From positions 1 to 64,000 of the forward strand of contig JAUTCR010000029.1 in NCBI GenBank assembly GCA_030673895.1: a stretch of 64,000 nucleotides of DNA, in the 5' to 3' direction. Shown in pieces: positions 8,480 through 60,973 of this stretch. A program made the translations under genes and the position numbers. The stretch is from Verrucomicrobiota bacterium JB023 (GTDB lineage: Bacteria > Verrucomicrobiota > Verrucomicrobiia > Verrucomicrobiales > Akkermansiaceae). The notes below the pieces were generated by a model, which ran no database searches, had not been told where the DNA came from, and saw only the letters and a list, made by a program, of their open reading frames with translations. Position 1 is the stretch's first letter. Each line of letters begins with the position of its first letter.

Positions 8480-8807
8480 ATGCGCTACGCTCTCCTTGCG
8501 AAGGTCGTCTCCTCCCGCACCATCGTGGGTGAGCAACGGGAGCAGTTTGGAGAAGATTTGAAGCAGTGCTTCGCCCATCTTAATGCGAAGCATGCTTCCT
8601 CTCTCTCCGCCCCGCTGACCCCGACGAAAGGCGTCGACGGATTTTCGGTCATGGTTGGCACCCGAGCGAATGCAATACGAGCTCGCGGAGCAAGCCGCAG
8701 TCTTTCCCCAAAAGTACTCAAAGGCCTTGAATCGGGCTAGCTTTCACGAGATCGTCGAGGTGAACCAGACCCTCACGCAATGGATGTCACAACTCCCCTC
8801 TGGCTAG
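8480..8807 (+). pseudogene. Probable decayed SatD-family gene remnant
   Basis: The 532-base gap between pckG and the VIT gene contains two plus-strand frames that look coding but do not join. The first starts at ATG 8480 (RYALLAKVVSSRTIVGEQRE... to SLSAPLTPTKGVDGFSVM). It resembles the N-terminus of SatD-family proteins (ALIADVVxSR, then SPFTITxGDEFQ), with key positions lost. The second frame, open from about 8618 to a TAG at 8805-8807, gives MQYELAEQAAVFPQKY... to WMSQLPSG and would be a later part of the same protein after a frameshift and deletion. The match is judged by eye and is weak. The alternative is a real 86-codon ORF of unknown function. From 8808 to 8961 nothing is seen. Confidence 0.35.
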
Positions 8808-9897: not shown

Positions 9898-11181
9898 ATG
9901 AAACCTCAGCAAATCATCCTCGGAACCGTATGGGCTGGCAGCCTGGCAGCCGCCTTCTTCATCGGGAAGACCACGGTGAGCCCCGAATCAACAGCCGCCC
10001 AGCAAGTCGCTGCAGCCAGATCGAGCACCAGATCGTCCGGTGCGGCCGGAGGAGGCTCTGCGAGTGCGGGTCTCGGCGGGACCTCTGCCCGCTCCCGGCT
10101 TGAGGCCTCGCCTCTTGTCCAGAAAGGCTCCTCCCCCGTCCAAGCCATTGCTGATATCGCCCGTGGCGATGACCCCATCGAGCGGGCCAATGCCCTTATC
10201 GCTCTCATCGACACCCTGGGACCAGACGAGTTCGAGGGCGTGGTGGACGCCTTCCGTGAGCTGGGGATGACCGACGAGCGCCGCGCGGAGTATGCCATGC
10301 TGCTTACCGCCTGGGCTAAAGTCGCTCCGCTTGAGGCGCTTGCCTACGCTGATGAAAACACAGGCGGAAGCTTCGCCCGCAATACCATTCTCTCCACTTG
10401 GGCCGGCACCAATCCGGATGGAGCCCTCGCTTGGGCCAACGAAAACTACGACGGCGACGGAGGGAATCCCTTCCTCGTCGGCGTCATCCGTGGCCTGGTC
10501 AACAACGACCTCGACCGTGCCACGGAGATCATGGAGACGATGCCCCGCTCCCGCGAGCGAGGCTCGGCAATCTCCGCCATCACCGACATGTTGGCTAGCG
10601 GCGATCCCGAAGTGGCCAAGGAATGGACCCAAGACATTGAGGATGATGAACTTCGCTCCAGCACGGTAGCCTTCACGGCAGAGAAGATCGCGGAACGGGA
10701 CCCTGCTTCTGCAGCGGAGTGGCTCACCGATTTGAACGATACTGACGCGACGAATCGAGTGGGCGAGGACTTGACTGAAGATTGGTATCGCGAGGATCCC
10801 GAGGCTGCCATTGCCTGGGCCTCTACCCTGCCCTCAGAGACCATTGGCGAGGCTGTCGAAGGCATTGCCGACCGGATGGTGCGGGAAGATCCCGTCGTCG
10901 CCGCACAATGGATTTCGGAAATTGCGCAGGCCAATCCAGACGCCAATTTCGATGGCGCGGTAGGTGAGATTATCCGTGGCTCCGCTGATAGAGATCCTCT
11001 ACTGGCTGCCGAGTGGATCACCGGGATCCGCGATGAACGCTCCCGCAACCGCTACTACAATCGAGTACTTGGCCGCTGGCAAGACAACGACCCCGCCGCC
11101 GCCAATCAGTGGATCCAGAGCAACGCCAATTCCCTGCCCGAGTCCATCCAGCGACGTTTCCTGGAATCAAACGACAGCTAA
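9898..11181 (+). CDS. Secreted or anchored repeat protein with about nine DPxxAxxW units
   Basis: 427 residues. The N-terminus has one hydrophobic segment (IILGTVWAGSLAAAFFIG) that would act as a signal or anchor, followed by a Ser/Ala/Gly-rich linker. From about residue 140 to the end there are some nine units of 31-33 residues. Each opens with a form of DPxxAxxW: PDGALAWA, DPEVAKEW, DPASAAEW, DPEAAIAW, DPVVAAQW, DPLLAAEW, DPAAANQW. The units look all-helical, so an alpha-solenoid is likely, probably a protein-binding surface outside the inner membrane. Similar repeat proteins are frequent in Verrucomicrobiota and have no assigned function. A weak Pho-box-like sequence lies at 9831-9848. The gene is convergent with the ABC ATPase that follows. 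Confidence 0.7.
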   Translation: MKPQQIILGTVWAGSLAAAFFIGKTTVSPESTAAQQVAAARSSTRSSGAAGGGSASAGLGGTSARSRLEASPLVQKGSSPVQAIADIARGDDPIERANALIALIDTLGPDEFEGVVDAFRELGMTDERRAEYAMLLTAWAKVAPLEALAYADENTGGSFARNTILSTWAGTNPDGALAWANENYDGDGGNPFLVGVIRGLVNNDLDRATEIMETMPRSRERGSAISAITDMLASGDPEVAKEWTQDIEDDELRSSTVAFTAEKIAERDPASAAEWLTDLNDTDATNRVGEDLTEDWYREDPEAAIAWASTLPSETIGEAVEGIADRMVREDPVVAAQWISEIAQANPDANFDGAVGEIIRGSADRDPLLAAEWITGIRDERSRNRYYNRVLGRWQDNDPAAANQWIQSNANSLPESIQRRFLESNDS

Positions 11182-14139: not shown

Positions 14140-14415
14140 ATGAAAACAGACATTCATCCTGATTACCACCCGGTCATCTTCCAGGACATGACCACTGGTC
14201 GCCGCTTCTTCTCTCGCTCGACATCGAAGTCGGACAAGACTGAAGAAGTCGATGGCGTTGAGCACTACGTCATCTCGATGGGTATCACCTCTGATTCCCA
14301 CCCCTTCTTCACTGGCCAGAAGCAGTTCGTCGATACCGAAGGCCGCATCGACAAGTTCCAGAAGCGTTTCGGAACGGTCCGCCGTTCCAAGAAGCCATCT
14401 CTGGGTGGCAACTAA
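14140..14415 (+). CDS. rpmE2: 50S ribosomal protein L31 type B (zinc-independent)
   Basis: 91 residues. The start MKTDIHPDYHPVIFQD and the motif GQKQFVDTEGRIDKFQKRFG are diagnostic of L31. There is no Cys at all, so the CxxC zinc site of the type-A protein is missing and this is the longer type-B form. It is a structural protein of the large subunit that forms part of an intersubunit bridge. The gene is monocistronic: its own promoter lies upstream, a hairpin ATCCGT-ATA-ACGGAT begins at the stop codon, and a strong terminator follows at 14447. Confidence 0.96.
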   Translation: MKTDIHPDYHPVIFQDMTTGRRFFSRSTSKSDKTEEVDGVEHYVISMGITSDSHPFFTGQKQFVDTEGRIDKFQKRFGTVRRSKKPSLGGN

Positions 14416-14446
14416 TCCGTATAACGGATACAGATTTTTCAATAGC

Positions 14447-14479
14447 GAGCGGGATGACAAAATCATCCCGCTCTTTTTT
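14447..14479 (+). terminator. Strong intrinsic terminator after rpmE2
   Basis: A perfect 11-base-pair stem (GAGCGGGATGA at 14447-14457 with TCATCCCGCTC at 14463-14473), a CAAAA loop and a run of six Ts form a textbook Rho-independent terminator. Confidence 0.92.
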
Positions 14480-14539
14480 GGTTTAAGTCCCAAAATTCAC
14501 TTTTCCTGACTACCTCGATAACTTCAGCTTTCCTATATT

Positions 14540-37085: not shown

Positions 37086-38168
37086 ATGAAGTTGCCGCCC
37101 CACGAATACCTGCCTAGGTTCCGTGGTGGGATGAAGGCGATTCTCGTGGCCACTTTCGGCACTCTCCTGCTGGCAAGTCTGGCGGCGGAGCCGGTTGTCT
37201 TCACCATCGACCAATCCGATATCCAGCGGTCAATCTACTTTTCCTCCGGGCAATCAGACAGTGCCAATGCACCATTCTCCGGAACGCTTGTTGCCGAGGT
37301 GCAGCTGGATGAGGATGGAGGCTTGACCTCATTTCACTTCATCGGAGGGCGCTATCTTGATGAAGGTTCCGAGTTCACTTTTAATTTTGGCACCATTCCG
37401 TCGACTTCCAGCTTCACCCTGGCCTCACGACAGATCGGGATCTCTCCCTTCAGTGAAGGGGACGGCCCAGGGATTGATGGCGAGACGGGGCTTCTCGATG
37501 ATTTCAGCCACTACTGGATCGCAGACGCCGGAATGATTGTGCTCAGCTACGGGCCGTTCGAGGAAGTCCTCCGGGACTACTCCGCCGTTCCTCTCACCTC
37601 CAATTTCCTGAGTTCGACCTCAGTGAGCCAAGACTGGCGTTTAACCTCTGCCTTGGGAGTCCGGACGGGGCTGGCTCTCAATATTTCTCTCGATCACCTC
37701 GAGAACTACACCCTGGTCCCGGAAAATCCTCCCGACAACCCGGGGCTAAGCGCTCAAGTCCAAGTGATCGGAGAGACCATTGCCCGGGGTGAACATTTCT
37801 CACCCAGCGAGGAATTCACCGCCTGGCTGACTCATCATAGCCAAAGCATCGAGCACTTGGATACAATCAACCCGGAAACAGGAATGCCCCTCGCCTTGCT
37901 CTTCGCCCTCCGACTGCCGGCGGATGCGCTGACCCTGGGCCTGGAAGTTGAGCCCCTGACCCGGGTCGCGCGAATGGAGTTGCCTGCCGAGGGACCGCGC
38001 GTCCCCCTCTCACTGGAGGTCTCACCCGACATGGCAACTTGGTCGGAACTCGACTCGGACGGACGTCTTCAAGGTGGCCCCACCTTCGCGGTGAGCGACA
38101 CGGGGGCTGTCGAGGTTCCCTTGCCTGACTGGCCGCGCCTTTTCATCCGGCTGCGGACGGATGACTAA
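37086..38168 (+). CDS. Hypothetical secreted protein with verrucomicrobial C-terminal tail
   Basis: 360 residues from ATG 37086, which has a strong GAGGAG site 5 nt upstream; a second ATG at 37131 (MKAILVATFGTLLLASLAAEP) begins directly with the signal peptide and is equally possible. The mature part is beta-rich with no Cys and no recognised domain (EVQLDEDGGLTSFHFIGGRYL, shown in part). The C-terminal 60 residues (LSLEVSPDMATWSEL, ending LFIRLRTDD) match the SxDxxxW ... FxRL ending seen in the subtilase. It is 9 nt after the U32 gene and may be co-transcribed. Confidence 0.65.
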   Translation: MKLPPHEYLPRFRGGMKAILVATFGTLLLASLAAEPVVFTIDQSDIQRSIYFSSGQSDSANAPFSGTLVAEVQLDEDGGLTSFHFIGGRYLDEGSEFTFNFGTIPSTSSFTLASRQIGISPFSEGDGPGIDGETGLLDDFSHYWIADAGMIVLSYGPFEEVLRDYSAVPLTSNFLSSTSVSQDWRLTSALGVRTGLALNISLDHLENYTLVPENPPDNPGLSAQVQVIGETIARGEHFSPSEEFTAWLTHHSQSIEHLDTINPETGMPLALLFALRLPADALTLGLEVEPLTRVARMELPAEGPRVPLSLEVSPDMATWSELDSDGRLQGGPTFAVSDTGAVEVPLPDWPRLFIRLRTDD

Positions 38169-53736: not shown

Positions 53737-55220
53737 AGCCTGGCCTCCTTTCCGCGCAATTCATCGATGATCCGGCGGGCCACCTTTCGATCGTCAAACT
53801 CGATCGTCCGGTCCGAGAAGATTTGGTAATCCTCATGTCCCTTCCCCGCGATGAGGATGATGTCTCCCTCGCGGGCTGCCTCGATCGCCCGGCGGATGGC
53901 CTCCTCGCGATCCTCGATCAGCGTGTAAGCCTCGCCTGCAAAACCTTTCTCCACCTCGCGCATGATCGCGTCCGGCTCTTCCCCGCGGGGGTTGTCGGAA
54001 GTCACGATGCAGAAGCTACTCAAGGCCTCAGCCGCCCGGGCCATGGGGGCCCGTTTGCCCCGATCCCGATCCCCTCCGCAGCCAAAGACAGTAATCAAAC
54101 GACTTGGCTCAAGCTCGCGCAGGGTTCGGCAAACATTCTGCAGCGCGTCAGGCGTGTGCGCGTAATCGACAAAAACAGGAACACCGCTCTTCATCCCCGC
54201 CAGCTCCAGACGACCCGGCACCCCCTTCATCTCTTTCAAGACATTGAGAGCCTCGCGCATCGGAACTCCCACGGAAGTGACCGCGGCCAAAGCGGCCAGC
54301 ACGTTCATGACATTGAAGCGACCAATCAGTGGCACCCGGACCAAGAAGGATTTCGACTTGGCCTCCAATTGAAATTCAGTCCCGCGGGCGTCTTGCTTCA
54401 TCCGGCCCGCGCGAAAATCGCACTGACTAGAGAAGCCGTAGGTCACGATATTGAGCCGGGAAGCGAAGTCGTCGACCAACTCGACCCCATATCGATCGTC
54501 CAGGTTAATCACCGCCGCCGCATTCCCCTTGGCATTGGCCATTTGGGTGAAGAGCTTCTTCTTCGCTGCGAAGTAATTCTCCATCGTGCCGTGGTAATCG
54601 AGGTGGTCTTGCGTCAGGTTGGTGAAGACGCCCACGTTGAAATCGACACCCAGGGTCCGCCCCTGCTCCAATCCATGTGAGGAAACCTCCATGACCACCC
54701 CACCGCAGCCATTGTCACGCATCCGCGCGAGCAGAGACTGCAACTCCAGGGCTCCCGGAGTGGTTTGCTTGGCGGGGTTCGACTCCACCCCGTCATCGAT
54801 AGCTACGGTTCCAATCATCCCCGCCCGCATGCGGGTCGCCTTGAGGATGGTGTGCACGAGGTACGCGATCGTGGTCTTGCCGTTCGTTCCCGTTACTCCG
54901 ACCATCGGAAGATCACGCGACGGTGAGTGGTGCCAGGCATCCGCAATGTTGGCGAGAGCGAGACGGCTATCCTTCACCCGGATCCACACCTTGTCGTATC
55001 CTTCAGGTGGTTCGGTCTCTGCAACGATGGCCGCCGCCCCCTGCGTCACCGCCTTGGAGATGTAGTCATGACCGTCGACCGCCAAGCCCCGGACAGCGAC
55101 AAAGAGGCTCCCGGGCGTCACCTGGCGCGAGTCATCGTGGACGCCGCTAAGTTCGACCCCATCGCGGGGACCGGAGACATGCGGTTGGGATAGGCAGAGG
55201 ACAAGATCTTCCAATTTCAC
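53733..55220 (-). CDS. murE: UDP-MurNAc-L-alanyl-D-glutamate--2,6-diaminopimelate ligase
   Basis: 495 residues. The ATP loop is GVTGTNGKTTIAYLV; VMEVSSHGLEQGR and NLTQDHLDYHGTMENYF are further motifs. The C-terminal DNPR motif in TSDNPRGEEP is the known mark of the meso-diaminopimelate enzyme as against the L-lysine type, so the wall is DAP-type. The start overlaps the ftsI stop by 4 bases. Confidence 0.97.
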   Translation of the reverse strand: MKLEDLVLCLSQPHVSGPRDGVELSGVHDDSRQVTPGSLFVAVRGLAVDGHDYISKAVTQGAAAIVAETEPPEGYDKVWIRVKDSRLALANIADAWHHSPSRDLPMVGVTGTNGKTTIAYLVHTILKATRMRAGMIGTVAIDDGVESNPAKQTTPGALELQSLLARMRDNGCGGVVMEVSSHGLEQGRTLGVDFNVGVFTNLTQDHLDYHGTMENYFAAKKKLFTQMANAKGNAAAVINLDDRYGVELVDDFASRLNIVTYGFSSQCDFRAGRMKQDARGTEFQLEAKSKSFLVRVPLIGRFNVMNVLAALAAVTSVGVPMREALNVLKEMKGVPGRLELAGMKSGVPVFVDYAHTPDALQNVCRTLRELEPSRLITVFGCGGDRDRGKRAPMARAAEALSSFCIVTSDNPRGEEPDAIMREVEKGFAGEAYTLIEDREEAIRRAIEAAREGDIILIAGKGHEDYQIFSDRTIEFDDRKVARRIIDELRGKEARL

Positions 55221-57094
55221 TGGCTGGCAATTTCTGGTTGGGGAATCGGGACGGTAGGCACGAGGTTCATCGCCGAAACAAACCGGCTGGCAACCTTGGC
55301 AAAAACAGGAGCCGCAATGGTGCCACCTCCCGGCTTCAGGTCTCCTGAAGGACGAGGGTCATCAATCACCACAACGGCGACAAAGGCAGGGTCCTCAGCC
55401 GGCATCATGCCAGCAAAAGACGTGACATAACGATTACTATAGTATCCGCCGGGTTTCGCTTTCCGGCTGGTTCCGGTCTTTCCTGCAACGCGAAAACCCG
55501 GGACGCGAGCACGGGTTGCGGTCCCCCCCTCCTCTGTCACTTGAGACAGCGCCTCCCGCATCTCGCGAGCGACCCACGGCTGAACAACCTGGCGGACCAT
55601 CTCGGGCTTAAATTCACAAATCTTCGTTCCATTGTTGGCAATGGCGGACTTCACCACCGTGGGCTTCATCAAACGTCCCCCATTGGCGATCGCCCCATAA
55701 GCTGCGGTGAGTTGGAGCGGAGTGACGTCGATACCATACCCATAGGAGATTCGCGAATGGTCCGTGGGGTTGCTACTCCGGTTCAGCAATCCCGAAAGCT
55801 CGGCTCCCAATGAAATCCCCGTCGGCTGCCCAAACCCAAAGCGCTCATAATAGTCGTAGAGCGTCTCCTTGGGCATCATCTTGGCAAATTGATAAGTCCC
55901 GATGTTACTCGATTTCATCAGGACTTTTTCCAAGCTCATCCACCCGTAGTGGCCGACATCATTAATCTTCAGCTCGGCATAGTGACCATTGTGACAGAAG
56001 ACTGATGTCTCACGATTGGCCAAGCCGAGATCCATGACCGCGCTGGTCGGGACGATTTTGATCGTGGACCCGGGTTCATAGATTGCCTGCGTCGCATAGT
56101 TCACACCGGCAGTGGAAACATTCTCCCGCAGATTGAGATTGAAGGCCGGACGGCTGGCCATGGCGAGAATCTCGCCCGTGCCGGGCTCCATGACGACGAT
56201 GGTTCCCCTCTCGGCATTGGCAAACTCGAGACCCGCATCCAGCTCCTCTTCGACGATTGCCTGCAGGCTGAGGTCCAAGGTCAGCTGAACGCTCAGCCCT
56301 TGGATGGGCGGCTTCACCACGCTCTGGCTTTTTCCGAGAGCCAAATCCTGAGCATCGCGACGGGTCACCTCGTAGCCATCCTTCCCGGCGAGATAGGCGG
56401 ACATGCTCCGCTCCACCCCGGACTTGCCGACTCCCTCGTGGTTCACAATTCCGACAACATGGCAGGCCATGTCCGGGTTCGGATACCAGCGGCGGTAACC
56501 CTTCTGCAAGATGACGCCCTGCAGACGATTCTCACGGATGACTTGCTCCAGCTCATCCGCCACATCCTCAGTCACATTCTTGGCGATGATCGTCTCTCCA
56601 TGCCCGAGCGGGCCAATCTTCTTCAAGAGGGCCTCCCGGCTTTCAAAACCCAAGCGGGGCACGAGAATCTTGACGAGGAAATCCAAATGCTGCCGCACGA
56701 CGTCGTCGGGGTCCTCGGATTCAAAGAGTTCGCGGCGTTTCGCGGCAAGGATGCGGTTCCGCTCCTTCGGCCCCGCCGTTGCCCAGCGCGGGTCCATCAT
56801 CGCGAGAGGATACGCCACCCCACCAATCACCTCATTGCATTTGCCCAATTGCCGAAGGTCCACCTTGACCGTCGTGACCGGGATATTGCGGGCAATAATC
56901 TCCTCATTGCGGTCACAAATATAGCCACGCTGGGCGAAGAGAGGCCGCTTCGCCTCGAAGCCCCGGGACTCCTTGTGACTTGTCCGCCCAGTCTCGGTCC
57001 CTTGCAGGAAAACCAGCCTCACTGAAAGCGCACTAAGCCCGACGACAAGCGTCAGGCAAACAATCAACAAGCGCACTTCCAGTCCTCTCTTCAT
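55217..57094 (-). CDS. ftsI: Class B penicillin-binding protein (septal transpeptidase FtsI/PBP3)
   Basis: 625 residues. One N-terminal membrane helix (LLIVCLTLVVGLSALSVRLVF, in part), a dimerisation domain, and the transpeptidase domain with SxxK in EPGSTIKIV (about 345), SxN in KSSNIGTYQ and KTG in VAGKTGTSRKA (about 538). It crosslinks peptidoglycan at the division site with FtsW. It has no PASTA repeats. It is 1 nt downstream of the ftsL-like gene. Confidence 0.96.
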   Translation of the reverse strand: MKRGLEVRLLIVCLTLVVGLSALSVRLVFLQGTETGRTSHKESRGFEAKRPLFAQRGYICDRNEEIIARNIPVTTVKVDLRQLGKCNEVIGGVAYPLAMMDPRWATAGPKERNRILAAKRRELFESEDPDDVVRQHLDFLVKILVPRLGFESREALLKKIGPLGHGETIIAKNVTEDVADELEQVIRENRLQGVILQKGYRRWYPNPDMACHVVGIVNHEGVGKSGVERSMSAYLAGKDGYEVTRRDAQDLALGKSQSVVKPPIQGLSVQLTLDLSLQAIVEEELDAGLEFANAERGTIVVMEPGTGEILAMASRPAFNLNLRENVSTAGVNYATQAIYEPGSTIKIVPTSAVMDLGLANRETSVFCHNGHYAELKINDVGHYGWMSLEKVLMKSSNIGTYQFAKMMPKETLYDYYERFGFGQPTGISLGAELSGLLNRSSNPTDHSRISYGYGIDVTPLQLTAAYGAIANGGRLMKPTVVKSAIANNGTKICEFKPEMVRQVVQPWVAREMREALSQVTEEGGTATRARVPGFRVAGKTGTSRKAKPGGYYSNRYVTSFAGMMPAEDPAFVAVVVIDDPRPSGDLKPGGGTIAAPVFAKVASRFVSAMNLVPTVPIPQPEIASQ

Positions 57095-57095
57095 C

Positions 57096-57434
57096 TCACT
57101 CTTTCCTCGCTACCAGGGGATCCATTGAAACTGGGGCGATATCGATAATCGCCTCTTGCGGGATTGGTAGAAGCCCGGTGCCTCTCGTCGTTAAAAGCTC
57201 CCGAAGAGCAAAGCGATTGGCATGCTGCCCCAAGCGAATCTCAAGATTCGTCACGTCCCGCTCATGCTCCTTGATGCGGCGCTCGACCACCTCGATCTCC
57301 TTGGCCACGCGCAGCTGCCGATTCTTCACCACCACTCGAAAGACCTCGGTGCAACCCAGAGACAGGGCTGTCATCACCAACAAGATGATGGCAAAGGGAC
57401 TCATTCCTGCACTTTTCTTACGATTGCGACTCAT
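57096..57434 (-). CDS. ftsL: FtsL-like division protein
   Basis: 112 residues. A basic cytosolic start (SRNRKKSAG), one membrane helix (about 12-32, FAIILLVMTALSLGCTEVF) and a short coiled coil (about 38-72, LRVAKEIEVVERRIKEHERD in part) followed by a polar tail. This is the FtsL/DivIC shape, which is poorly conserved in sequence; the position between rsmH and ftsI is the usual one for ftsL. It would form the FtsQLB-like scaffold that activates FtsWI. The start overlaps rsmH by 4 bases. Confidence 0.8.
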   Translation of the reverse strand: MSRNRKKSAGMSPFAIILLVMTALSLGCTEVFRVVVKNRQLRVAKEIEVVERRIKEHERDVTNLEIRLGQHANRFALRELLTTRGTGLLPIPQEAIIDIAPVSMDPLVARKE

Positions 57435-58399
57435 GACTTTAATTTTGCGGCTCTCAGGTGGGCGCTTCGGGACCTTGGATTGGCGGCCAACTCCTCGGCT
57501 CCGGCCGATACGGCCTTTCTAGTAATCGGCACAAGGGCCCAGTCCGGGTTCGGACGTGGCTCCGGCCATTCGGGACGGTCCAGCCATTGGCGGCTGCGGT
57601 CCCTCATGAAATTCTTCACCAAGCGATCCTCAAGACTGTGAAAGGTAATGACTGCCAGGACACCGCCGGGCTTGAGGACATTCAAGGAAGCACGCAAAGC
57701 CTTCTCCACCTCATCCAATTCGGCATTCACCGCGATTCTCAAAGCTTGAAAAACTCGCGTGGCCGGATGCTTGCGCCCCCGCCCTCCCATTGCGCTCGCC
57801 ACACAATCGGCGAGCTGCAGGGTTCGCGTGAAGGACTCCTGCTGGCGAGCCTTGGCGATGGCTGCGGCAATCTTCCGCGAAGCTTTCTCCTCCCCGAATC
57901 GATAAAAAACATTGGCCAAGTCCTCCTCAGCCCAGGTGTTAACGAGATCGGCTGCAGTCTCCCCCTTGCTCCGATCCATTCGCATGTCGAGAGGACCGTC
58001 CTTTTGGAAGGAGAAACCGCGTTCTGCTTCATCCAGTTGCCAAGATGAGACCCCGAGGTCGAGCAAGACCCCATCCAGGGAAGCAGGTTCGACAGCCTCC
58101 TCCATCTGGGAAAAATTAAGATGAACGGCCCGGAAGCGATCGCCATAGCCCTCGAGCCGGCGGGACGCATAAGCGAGCGCGTCTTCATCGCGATCAAGGC
58201 CGATCACAGAGGCCCCGGCGGCCAAGAGAGCCTGACTATGCCCTCCGCCGCCGAGAGTTCCGTCCAATACGCGCTTCCCCGCCAGCGGACCGAAAACCGC
58301 TATCGTTTCTTCGCGCAAAACCGAGACATGATAACCGCTACTTGCGCCGTTATCACCCTCACCTCGAGAATGATATGCCAACTCCCGCCATTCCGGCAT
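57431..58399 (-). CDS. rsmH: 16S rRNA (cytosine-1402-N4)-methyltransferase
   Basis: 322 residues from ATG 58399 (MPEWRELAYHSRGEG). The frame continues upstream to 58519, but that part is translated repeat DNA, so the shorter start is chosen. Family motifs: YHVSVLREETI, DGTLGGGGHSQALL (S-adenosylmethionine binding), LDLGVSSWQLDEAERGFSF (in part), MRMDRSKGETA and VITFHSLEDRLVKNF. It methylates C1402 of 16S rRNA in the ribosomal P site. It is the first of the tightly coupled dcw genes after mraZ. Confidence 0.95.
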   Translation of the reverse strand: MPEWRELAYHSRGEGDNGASSGYHVSVLREETIAVFGPLAGKRVLDGTLGGGGHSQALLAAGASVIGLDRDEDALAYASRRLEGYGDRFRAVHLNFSQMEEAVEPASLDGVLLDLGVSSWQLDEAERGFSFQKDGPLDMRMDRSKGETAADLVNTWAEEDLANVFYRFGEEKASRKIAAAIAKARQQESFTRTLQLADCVASAMGGRGRKHPATRVFQALRIAVNAELDEVEKALRASLNVLKPGGVLAVITFHSLEDRLVKNFMRDRSRQWLDRPEWPEPRPNPDWALVPITRKAVSAGAEELAANPRSRSAHLRAAKLKS

Positions 58400-58420
58400 T
58401 GCCAGCTTGCCCCAGGAAAA

Positions 58421-58514
58421 CCCGGCAAGGCAGCGGGGCTCCCCGGCCAATGCCGGAATGGATGCGGGTGTCAGCATGTGTTCCAGTGTTCCAGTCTGTG
58501 TTCCAGTAAATCGT
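58421..58514. repeat. Interspersed repeat copy A between rsmH and mraZ
   Basis: First of three copies in the 454-base gap between rsmH and mraZ. On the plus strand it begins GGCAAGGCA, has a variable GC-rich middle, and ends TGTTCCAGTGTTCCAGTC, then TGTGTTCCAGTAAATCG. The shared ends and variable centre are described in the findings. No coding function is supported, though spurious frames run through it on both strands. Confidence 0.8.
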
Positions 58515-58598
58515 TCCAACCCTCTTTCTCTCTTCCCTCAAGCAGACTGAACTTGCCCCCACTCCGCGCCGGTCAGGCGGCGGCATGTTCCAAATCCG

Positions 58599-58694
58599 TC
58601 ACCAGCAAGGCATGGGGACCAGGCCCACCGCTTGTTTTGACTACGGAGTGGAGACAGTGTTCCAGTGTTCCAGTCTGTTTTACCCAATAAATTG
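58599..58694. repeat. Interspersed repeat copy B
   Basis: Second copy in the same orientation. It opens AGCAAGGCA, contains GTGTTCCAGTGTTCCAGTC as in copy A, and ends CCAATAAATTG. The middle shares little sequence with copy A. Confidence 0.8.
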
Positions 58695-58759
58695 TTCTCT
58701 CCTTCAGTCCGGACACTGCCACCCCGTCCTGCCCGGTGACCCGGTTCAGTCGAAAAACT

Positions 58760-58841
58760 CCAGTCGACAAGGCATTCTTGACGAGCCGGGCTCTCGGGTT
58801 GGTTTCGGGGTGACAGCATTGTTCCAGCCTTCCAGTAAATC
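58760..58841. repeat. Interspersed repeat copy C
   Basis: Third copy, same orientation, shorter. It opens GACAAGGCA, contains TGTTCCAGCCTTCCAGTAAATC near its right end, and TGACAGCAT just before that, as in copy A (TGTCAGCAT). It stops 12 bases before the mraZ stop codon. Confidence 0.75.
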
Positions 58842-58853
58842 TTTCTGCTCGGT

Positions 58854-59324
58854 TCATTCTCCGAAGCCGACGATGTCGAAGAGATTTCCAAGCGCTTTCT
58901 CTTCGGCTGCCTCCATGGCTTCGATGTCCCGCGGACTCACCAAGTCGAAACTCGTGATCCGCCCTCTCAAGTACACCATGTTCGATGTTTCCAGCCCCAT
59001 CTTGTCGGCGAGCTTCTTGGGGACAGCGAGCTTCCCCTGATCGTTCATGTGTACTGGCTCGATACGCGCCGAGATCGAACTCTTGGCCTGGGCTTTCTGC
59101 CCGACCGTCAGAGTCTCGTTCTGGTCAATGGATTCCATCATCGCGCTAAAAGCCTTGTCCGTCAGGACTCGCAGCACGGGCACGCCCAGATGCTGCCAGC
59201 TCAAGAGCCGCAAGTTCACCGTCTGACCTGATACCGGCCGCCAAGCAGCAGGCACCGCGACCCGGTATTTCGAGTCGAGCTTGAAGTCGTAGCCTCCTTC
59301 GAAGCTCTGGACGGTTGCACTCAC
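58854..59324 (-). CDS. mraZ: Transcriptional regulator MraZ
   Basis: 156 residues from the GTG at 59324. A longer frame starts at a GTG at 59351, but that codon lies against the -10 element of the promoter, so the internal GTG is preferred; AAAGGA lies 13 nt before it. The AbrB/MraZ fold is present twice: YDFKLDSKYRVAVPAAWRP at the N-terminus and VHMNDQGKLAVPKKLADKMG in the second half. MraZ is a ring-forming DNA-binding repressor of its own dcw operon. It is followed by the repeat-filled gap and then rsmH. Confidence 0.93.
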   Translation of the reverse strand: MSATVQSFEGGYDFKLDSKYRVAVPAAWRPVSGQTVNLRLLSWQHLGVPVLRVLTDKAFSAMMESIDQNETLTVGQKAQAKSSISARIEPVHMNDQGKLAVPKKLADKMGLETSNMVYLRGRITSFDLVSPRDIEAMEAAEEKALGNLFDIVGFGE

Positions 59325-59352
59325 AGGACACTTGAGTTCCTTTCGGTGCACT

Positions 59353-59405
59353 TTGATACACCGGCCTGCCGTTTTGAGTCAACTTTTTATTCTTTAGTAC
59401 ACTTT
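59353..59405 (-). promoter_or_regulatory. dcw operon promoter with candidate MraZ box
   Basis: On the minus strand TTGACT (59382-59377) and TATCAA (59358-59353) are 18 bases apart, a good -35/-10 pair; the start of transcription would be near 59346. Upstream and into the -35 lie AAAGTG (59405-59400), AAAGAA (59395-59390) and AAAGTT (59386-59381), spaced 9-10 bases, like the AAAGTG-type direct repeats that MraZ binds in some bacteria. Another AAAGTG overlaps the -10 at 59354-59349. Self-repression by MraZ is the natural reading. Confidence 0.55.
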
Positions 59406-59548
59406 GAGCACCCTGAAATCGTTGAAAGGCCAATATTTTAAAATTCTAAAATTTTTCCGACCTTTTTATTAAGACAACTTAAATAAGCTGACGAAAAGCA
59501 GACTCCGGCCCTTTCGAAAATCGTTCCCCTAGCCTCCCCGGATGTGTC

Positions 59549-60973
59549 ATGCCGGACGGATGCCGCATCCCTCGGCCGCCTTTTGAACGCCTCATTCTTG
59601 CATTCCTGGGAATCGCTTCGAGACTCCCGCCCGTGCGCGACATCCTCACTGGCCAGGGCCCCTTTCGACATCGTAATGTCCGCCTCTATGCGTGGTACAC
59701 CACGCTCTACAATGCGCGCGCCTACTATCCCGTCTTTGCGATTCTCTTCCTCGACCTCGGCCTGAGCCGGGAAACCTTCCTGGCTCTCAATGCCTTATGG
59801 GCAGGAACAATTTTTCTCCTCGAGGGTCCCTCCGGGGCACTCGCCGACCTCATTGGCCGCCGCAAGCTCATCCTGGCTGCCGCCGTGATGATGATAATGG
59901 AGATGGCCTGCCTCTTGGTCGCTCCGGCCAACGGAGGGGCTCTCTTGCTCGGCCTCTGCATTATCAACCGGCTGCTCTCCGGAGCCTCCGAGGCTTCGGC
60001 CAGCGGAGCAGACCAGGCACTGGCCTATGACACGCTCAAGGAGAAAGGAGAAGAAGCGCAGTGGGACCAGGTTCTCGCCTCGCTCATGGTTTTCCGGTCC
60101 GCTGCTTTCTTCTCGGCGATGATTCTTGGAGCCATACTTTACGACCCAAGTGTACTGGCGCGTCTCATTCCCGCGCTTGCCGGCCTCGATCGGCAGACCA
60201 CCCTCAAGCTCCCCATCGCTCTCGTCTTTCTGCAAGGCCTCGCCTGCCTCGCGCTGAGCTGGAAGATGAGAGAAACGGGTGACGGACAACCCAGGGCGAA
60301 GCCGACCGTCAAGCAAGCCTTCGCGCAAACGCTGGGTGCCAGCCGCTGGATGTTCGCCACCCCGGCCGCACTCGTCGTCGTGCTCGGCGGCATTCTCGGA
60401 GATTCCTTCGCCCGCACCTTCGCTACCCTCACCTCCACCTACTTTCGCTTCATCGAGATCCCGACCTGGCTCTTTGGCTTCCTCGGAGCCACCTTCGCCC
60501 TCACCGGCCTTTTCGTCCCCCGCCTGGCCAAGGCACTGGCGAGGACTCTCTCGCCCAGACACCACTTGCTTATTATTACTGGCTGGTCGGCATTTTCCCT
60601 CATCCTACTGGCTCAGGCTTGGCCTTGGTGGGGCATTCTCCCCGCTATCGGGGTGATGGCGGTAATGTCATGGACCGACTTCCTCGTCTCCCGGGAACTC
60701 AATCGCTTGGCCGACTCAAGCCAGCGGGCCACCATCCTCTCGGTGAAGGGGCTACTCTTCAATCTTGGCTACGGATTAGCCTCCCTCGCCTTCGCCGGCG
60801 CGGTAACAGGGTTTAAGGAAGCCGGAGCCGACGAGGGCCAAGCCTTCCAATCCACCCTCCTATGGCAGCCAGTTGCCCTCATCCTGCTCATCGCCCTCTT
60901 TGCGCTCTGGTCCAGAGAGAAGACAAGGCCTCCCTCCCCCACCCATCCCGGCGCGCAACCGGAAACCGATTGA
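59549..60973 (+). CDS. Major facilitator superfamily transporter
   Basis: 474 residues with about 12 membrane helices. A GALADLIGRRKLIL loop between helices 2 and 3 is the MFS signature (G-x-x-x-D-x-x-G-R-R/K). An amphipathic N-terminus (PPFERLILAFLGIASRLP) precedes helix 1, and the central loop is short. The substrate is unknown; a drug or small-molecule exporter is possible. It is divergent from mraZ, with an AT-rich gap of about 200 bases between them, and 32 nt upstream of a sulfatase. Confidence 0.88.
   Translation: MPDGCRIPRPPFERLILAFLGIASRLPPVRDILTGQGPFRHRNVRLYAWYTTLYNARAYYPVFAILFLDLGLSRETFLALNALWAGTIFLLEGPSGALADLIGRRKLILAAAVMMIMEMACLLVAPANGGALLLGLCIINRLLSGASEASASGADQALAYDTLKEKGEEAQWDQVLASLMVFRSAAFFSAMILGAILYDPSVLARLIPALAGLDRQTTLKLPIALVFLQGLACLALSWKMRETGDGQPRAKPTVKQAFAQTLGASRWMFATPAALVVVLGGILGDSFARTFATLTSTYFRFIEIPTWLFGFLGATFALTGLFVPRLAKALARTLSPRHHLLIITGWSAFSLILLAQAWPWWGILPAIGVMAVMSWTDFLVSRELNRLADSSQRATILSVKGLLFNLGYGLASLAFAGAVTGFKEAGADEGQAFQSTLLWQPVALILLIALFALWSREKTRPPSPTHPGAQPETD

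What the first reader, a model, noticed from the sequence alone, without database searches (positions are those of the whole stretch)
58400..58853. Three copies of an undescribed repeat inserted between mraZ and rsmH
Three same-direction copies (58421-58514, 58599-58694, 58760-58841) share GnCAAGGCA at one end and TGTTCCAG-yGTTCCAGT...AGTAAATC at the other, with variable GC-rich centres. They sit inside an operon whose first two genes are usually adjacent. The TTCCAGTGTTCCAG core is a short tandem repeat. They may be non-autonomous mobile repeats, RNA-processing sites, or attenuator-like sequences that uncouple MraZ from the remaining genes.
Basis: seen in the sequence. Interest (0 to 1): 0.65.

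Follow-up and report, generated by a model that had tools for sequence, protein, structure and literature searches.

The report
Hairpin-array RNA leader of rsmH
The three repeats are halves of long RNA hairpins lined up at the start of a ribosome-modifying gene; the structure is conserved across a bacterial family and probably throttles how much of that gene, and perhaps of the cell-division genes behind it, is made, although the mechanism itself is untested.

Summary
The repeats are real, but they are neither mobile nor dispersed. In this 4.03-Mb genome the core occurs only here. All four held Roseibacillus genomes have 2-4 tandem units at the same mraZ-rsmH gap. In three of them the last unit carries the rsmH start codon at the hairpin base; R. 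ishigakijimensis lacks that unit. Outer stems covary (99% paired, 6 of 11 pairs with compensatory changes). Many other genera of the family start RsmH with a homologous hairpin. Two genera (g7, g13) carry 5-11 hairpins inside a translated 150-230-aa N-terminal RsmH extension; seven g7 genomes give 43 compensatory pairs (19 in shuffles), and codon divergence shows RNA-level constraint with the frame preserved. No Rfam family matches. Best explanation: a cis-acting RNA gate on rsmH translation (and perhaps on downstream dcw genes). Its early-ORF stem-loop is of the kind a 2026 preprint found to need RsmH-modified ribosomes, so autoregulation is a testable idea. Structure is well supported; mechanism is inference.

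The parts
58854..59351 (-). mraZ (divergent MraZ-like AbrB-fold regulator), first gene of the operon
   Evidence: ORF; best NCBIfam models are MraZ (NF001477 E 7e-11, below curated cut-off) and Pfam MraZ is sub-threshold; synteny with rsmH
59345..59405 (-). MraZ-box-like GTGTACT / GTGCACC repeats in front of mraZ, conserved in the four Roseibacillus genomes
   Evidence: sequence comparison; the Mollicute MraZ box AAAGTG[T/G] is described in PMC8475190
58821..58836 (-). unit 1 leader: two tandem 8-nt repeats (ACTGGAAG GCTGGAAC)
58709..58827 (-). unit 1 hairpin (43 bp, apical GCCTTG at 58768-58773)
   Evidence: MFE -59.7 kcal/mol for 58707-58842, z -3.4; coordinates
58659..58674 (-). unit 2 leader: ACTGGAAC ACTGGAAC
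58546..58666 (-). unit 2 hairpin (44 bp, apical GCCTTG at 58606-58611)
   Evidence: MFE -56.3 for 58545-58694, z -1.5, the weakest of the units tested; coordinates
58480..58507 (-). unit 3 leader: three ACTGGAAC repeats directly upstream of the rsmH start codon, the last two in tandem
58375..58477 (-). unit 3 hairpin (40 bp, apical GCCTTG at 58426-58431); begins at the ATG of rsmH and lies inside its reading frame
   Evidence: MFE -66.0 for 58372-58513, z -4.3, 0 of 200 shuffles as stable; most stable GC-adjusted 150-nt window on the minus strand of the 64 kb
58538..58819 (-). possible 93-codon ORF through units 1-2, starting at the unit-1 ATG; the same frame is open through all internal units in the four genomes
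   Evidence: no Pfam match for the G034 version
57431..58477 (-). rsmH (mraW) with a non-conserved N-terminal extension MLTPASIPALAGEPRCLAG... encoded by the hairpin
   Evidence: TIGR00006 E 2.6e-95 and PF01795 E 2.4e-100, matching from residue 49 on
55217..57434 (-). downstream dcw genes: small ftsL-position ORF and ftsI-like transpeptidase

Best explanation
This is a cis-acting RNA element of the mraZ-rsmH-fts operon. Shown by computation: (1) each unit is an unpaired leader of ACTGGAAC repeats followed by a 40-56-bp hairpin with a conserved GCCUUG tip, arranged in tandem; (2) base pairing is under selection, because arms diverge while pairing is kept; (3) in most Roseibacillus and in many other genera of the family the rsmH start codon lies at or just before one of the hairpins, so its early codons are occluded; (4) the hairpins lie in open reading frame. 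Inferred: the hairpins act as a translational gate. Ribosomes dock on the unpaired leader (standby or weak GGA sites) and must melt the hairpins to start and elongate RsmH, which keeps RsmH output low and dependent on translational capacity. Poor passage could also lower expression of the fts/mur genes behind it. More speculative: the gate reads RsmH's own product, because ribosomes methylated at 16S C1402 were reported to initiate better on mRNAs with early stem-loops, which would make rsmH autoregulated.
For: Units fold far better than dinucleotide shuffles (z -3.4 to -6.2 in 11 of 12). Outer stem in 10 Roseibacillus units: 99.1% of cells pair, 6 of 11 pairs with compensatory changes (2.5 in shuffles). 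In seven genomes of genus g7: 96.9% paired, 43 pairs with changes on both sides vs 19.2 +/- 2.7 shuffled and 3-11 in slid controls. In the g7/g13 extension the frame is kept at 94-100% of aligned sites, but codon-position divergence is nearly flat (about 0.18/0.18/0.25) whereas the RsmH core shows about 0.11/0.08/0.38: constraint is on RNA, with translation retained. The leader is identical across three species although rsmH third positions diverge 50-58%. rsmH has the most stable start region of 41 predicted genes in the window (-69.8, mean -42.5, sd 9.1). The array is locus-specific in Roseibacillus and in eight g7/g13 genomes. PMC13317604 reports that MraW/RsmH-modified ribosomes are needed for efficient translation of mRNAs with stem-loops occluding early codons.
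Against: No expression data exist here; transcription, start codon use and translation of the leader are not shown. R. ishigakijimensis (G024) lacks the rsmH-start unit and begins RsmH differently, though it also has strong structure there. Akkermansia (g3) and two genera with very short gaps lack the element, so it is not essential. A 40-bp hairpin at the start codon might block translation outright; the preprint found that a strengthened stem did. Autoregulation in the reported direction would be positive feedback, which is not an obvious limiter. The cited study is a preprint on B. subtilis.
Confidence: 0.5

Rival explanations
1. The hairpins are processing or stability elements: a double-strand-specific nuclease (RNase III) cuts the long stems and separates the mraZ mRNA from the rsmH-fts mRNA, giving each part its own half-life.
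For: Stems of 40-56 bp are the kind of long duplex RNase III cuts (general knowledge); they lie exactly between the two genes and are multiplied in tandem.
Against: In g7/g13 the hairpins lie inside a frame-preserved RsmH extension, so cutting there would destroy the rsmH message; conserved apical loops and leader are not needed for a plain RNase III site.
Confidence: 0.2
2. Transcription attenuator or polarity device: translation of the small upstream ORF decides whether transcription continues into rsmH.
For: The frame from the unit-1 ATG is open through all internal units in 4 of 4 genomes (0 stops in 503 codons; other frames carry 8-19); its stop overlaps the rsmH ATG in G034. G034 has a terminator-like hairpin plus U8 before the rsmH unit.
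Against: No terminator-like site on the minus strand of the gap in the window; hairpins end in UUUCC, not a U-run; GC by codon position of the ORF is not gene-like; the ORF has no Pfam match.
Confidence: 0.15
3. Binding array for a protein regulator (MraZ or an RNA-binding protein) that recognises the ACTGGAAC repeats or the conserved loops.
For: Leader repeats and loop sequence are the most conserved parts; MraZ proteins bind direct repeats upstream of mraZ (PMC8475190).
Against: MraZ-box-like repeats (GTGTACT) stand in front of mraZ in all four genomes and do not resemble ACTGGAAC; the 8-nt period does not fit one helical turn; the leader repeats are not found in the other genera.
Confidence: 0.08
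4. Non-functional palindromes kept alike by a mutational process (template switching, unequal recombination); in-frame only because rsmH must stay translatable.
For: Tandem duplication plainly occurs (147-bp periods); the peptide sequence of the extension is poorly conserved.
Against: Family-wide persistence at one locus, reduced third-position divergence, conserved unpaired leader and loops, and absence of similar arrays elsewhere in the genomes.
Confidence: 0.1

Closest known systems
mraW RNA motif (Rfam RF01746, Actinomycetales)
   Same: a conserved RNA structure in front of mraW/rsmH, presumed cis-regulatory (PMC2864571, PMC3890552)
   Different: no covariance-model match up to E 1; other phylum; not a tandem array and not described as part of the coding sequence
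MraW-dependent early stem-loops (B. subtilis cmpA, PMC13317604)
   Same: stem-loop that includes the start codon or early codons and limits translation
   Different: there a short stem in unrelated genes; here 40-50-bp hairpins, often in tandem, on rsmH itself; dependence on RsmH not tested
UpsM / extended 5' leader of the dcw cluster in Rhodobacteraceae (PMC5089854)
   Same: family-restricted structured RNA at the mraZ-rsmH cluster
   Different: lies upstream of mraZ and contains a Rho-independent terminator; no hairpin array at rsmH
REP, RPE and MITE-type palindromic repeats
   Same: GC-rich palindromes, sometimes in frame in coding sequence (from general knowledge)
   Different: those are dispersed in the genome; these are confined to one locus

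Membership tests
mraW RNA motif (RF01746) | match to the Rfam covariance model | tested here: not met
   no match up to E 1 in seven loci or in window 57000-60000
dispersed mobile or palindromic repeat (MITE, REP, RPE) | copies at several unrelated genomic places | tested here: not met
   only this locus in 4.03 Mb; same locus in relatives, one lone 1-mismatch core without hairpin in G034; one locus per genome in eight g7/g13 genomes
conserved cis-acting RNA structure | compensatory base changes beyond shuffled controls | tested here: met
conserved cis-acting RNA structure | constant position relative to one gene across species | tested here: met
   between the mraZ stop and the RsmH core in the family members that have it
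MraW-dependent early-stem-loop mRNA (cmpA type) | stem-loop occluding the start or early codons | tested here: met
   predicted pairing of AUG 0.25-1.0 and codons 2-6 0.53-0.73 in three Roseibacillus genomes; prediction only
MraW-dependent early-stem-loop mRNA (cmpA type) | translation falls without RsmH and is restored by stem disruption | not testable with these tools
   needs reporter assays in an rsmH mutant
intrinsic-terminator attenuator | GC hairpin directly followed by a U-run on the transcribed strand | tested here: not met
   none on the minus strand in the gap; a hairpin with U8 is seen before rsmH in G034
leader-peptide attenuator | translated small ORF whose translation changes RNA folding | tested here: inconclusive
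   open frame in 4 of 4 genomes, no proof of translation
MraZ box | GTG-type direct repeats (AAAGTG[T/G] in Mollicutes) | tested here: not met
   leader repeats are ACTGGAAC; MraZ-box-like repeats lie upstream of mraZ

The most novel reading that the evidence does not exclude
The array is an autoregulatory sensor: rsmH carries unusually strong early-ORF stem-loops so that its own translation reads out whether ribosomes carry the C1402 methylation made by RsmH, tying ribosome maturation to expression of the cell-division operon behind it.
Probability: 0.18. Interest if true: 0.85.

Novelty: new variant of a known kind. Interest (0 to 1): 0.64.

Why it matters
It is an undescribed structured RNA that sits inside translated sequence, evolves as RNA while keeping the reading frame, and marks the start of rsmH in many genera of one bacterial family. 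In two genera it lengthens a near-universal rRNA methyltransferase by 150-230 residues. It offers a natural test of the recent claim that RsmH-modified ribosomes are specialised for mRNAs with structured starts, and of whether the division operon is tied to ribosome maturation. It also warns that RsmH start sites in this family may be mis-annotated.

Tried and rejected
Mobile element: rejected. Known RNA family: none. Intrinsic terminators or internal promoters in the gap: no convincing site. The ACTGGAAC repeats as MraZ boxes: rejected. The extra core match in G034 (L013): isolated, no unit around it. Chance copies of the 17-mer in other phyla: none of the other contig hits lies next to mraZ or rsmH. 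A resemblance of the UGUCACCCC arm to 16S helix 44, the RsmH substrate, was considered and dropped: short, and absent from the g7/g13 hairpins.

Full report
What was checked. The three copies exist at the stated coordinates. With up to two mismatches the core TGTTCCAGTGTTCCAGT occurs nowhere else in the 4.03-Mb genome, and the whole gap has no other significant match in it. So this is not a dispersed element.

Where it comes from. The 17-mer scan of 84,980 species found 69 stretches; the only ones next to mraZ and rsmH are Roseibacillus persicicus, R. ishigakijimensis and an uncultured Roseibacillus. These are the genomes handled as G011, G024 and G034, the same genus as the window. All four held genomes of the genus carry the repeat, always at the mraZ-rsmH gap. 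Two of them are cultured collection strains, so it is not an assembly artefact.

What a unit is. On the operon strand each unit reads TTTACTGGATAACTGGAACACTGGAACA, then (often) ATG, then a long self-complementary stretch whose tip is GCCTTG(CC) and whose end is typically TTTCC. Among the measured unit periods four are exactly 147 nt; others are 148, 156, 181 and 199. The window has three units; G034 and G011 have four, G024 has two. Main hairpins have 40-56 pairs. Against dinucleotide shuffles 11 of 12 units have z between -3.4 and -6.2; the window's second unit is weaker (-1.5).

Pairing is under selection. In ten Roseibacillus units (excluding those at rsmH), the anchored outer stem pairs in 99.1% of cells, with six of eleven pairs showing compensatory changes (shuffled mean 2.5) and a collapse when partners are slid. 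This alignment was anchored on the predicted stem, so the cells-paired figure leans towards it. The leader, in contrast, is conserved letter for letter between three species whose rsmH third codon positions differ by 50-58%.

Relation to rsmH. Pfam and TIGR00006 match RsmH only from residue 49 of the frame that starts at ATG 58477. That ATG is the 5' base of the last hairpin, and the first codons (MLTPASIPALAGEPRCLAG) are the hairpin arm. The same start and hairpin occur in G011 and G034; G024 lacks that unit. In the window, the rsmH start region is the most stable of 41 predicted genes (-69.8 vs mean -42.5 kcal/mol, sd 9.1), and this hairpin is the most stable GC-adjusted window of the minus strand.

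Family-wide picture. Many other genera of the family also start RsmH with M-L-x-x-P-x-P-A or similar and a hairpin just after the ATG. In genera g7 and g13 the open frame upstream of the RsmH core holds a 150-230-aa extension made of repeats (LGT...GWL), encoded by 5-11 hairpins of at least 11 bp, again only at rsmH in each of eight genomes. Seven g7 genomes give 41 compensatory pairs by RNAalifold; in the counted structure 43 pairs have changes on both sides against 19.2 +/- 2.7 in shuffles and 3-11 in slid controls. The extension keeps its frame at 94-100% of aligned sites, yet divergence by codon position is nearly flat, with third positions slower and first and second positions faster than in the core. 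That is the signature of an RNA element that must remain translatable. Akkermansia (g3, named from its genome sizes and my own knowledge) has an unrelated extension, and most sampled genomes of other families in the order show no comparable structure. g7 and g13 are unnamed.

A possible small ORF. From the ATG of unit 1 the frame is open through all internal units in the four genomes (93, 168, 152 and 90 codons; no stop in 503, while the other five frames carry 8-19 stops each). In G034 its stop overlaps the rsmH ATG (ATGCTGA). Its codon-position composition is not gene-like, and the units share ancestry, so the evidence for a protein is moderate. The open frame could serve to keep ribosomes on this stretch.

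Mechanism. The anatomy (unpaired leader, start codon at the base of a very stable hairpin, hairpins kept in translated frame) fits a translational gate best. A 2026 preprint on B. subtilis reports that ribosomes modified by MraW (RsmH) translate mRNAs with early stem-loops better, and that a strengthened stem blocked translation (PMC13317604). The gene with the strongest early stem-loop in this window is rsmH itself, which makes an autoregulatory loop an attractive but untested idea. RNase III processing, attenuation, a protein-binding array and mutational maintenance are the rivals; none can be excluded from sequence alone.

Known relatives. The Rfam mraW motif (RF01746) is in Actinomycetales and does not match. 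The dcw leader UpsM of Rhodobacteraceae lies upstream of mraZ. Searches of the held literature for rsmH with Verrucomicrobia, and for Roseibacillus with mraZ, found nothing.

Limits. No expression data; structures are predictions; only four Roseibacillus genomes are held; MraZ is identified by synteny and weak profile matches.

Noticed in passing
L116 (G047) rsmH core, about positions 1725-1885 of the reverse-complemented locus: Two back-to-back hairpins of exceptional stability (about -99 kcal/mol in 160 nt) lie inside the conserved RsmH coding region of one g7 genome.
   Followed up: partly
L015 (G034), between unit 3 and the rsmH unit: Terminator-like hairpin CCTAATTCGGACGAATTAGG followed by AAAC and eight T, inside the possible small ORF; absent from the window.
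   Followed up: partly
L035, L169, L176-L179, L182 (Akkermansia-like genus g3): The frame upstream of the RsmH core is open for about 190-225 codons with an ordinary-looking, unrelated protein sequence, suggesting a fused N-terminal segment.
   Followed up: no
many genomes: Many genomes of the order carry a second, about 40% identical RsmH paralogue elsewhere in the genome.
   Followed up: no
window 59345-59405, minus strand: GTGTACT / GTGCACC repeats before mraZ are conserved in four Roseibacillus genomes and resemble the AAAGTG MraZ box of Mollicutes.
   Followed up: partly
window 8491-8640, 37681-37830, 14371-14520 and 10441-10590, minus strand: Other unusually stable 150-nt stretches for their GC content.
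   Followed up: no
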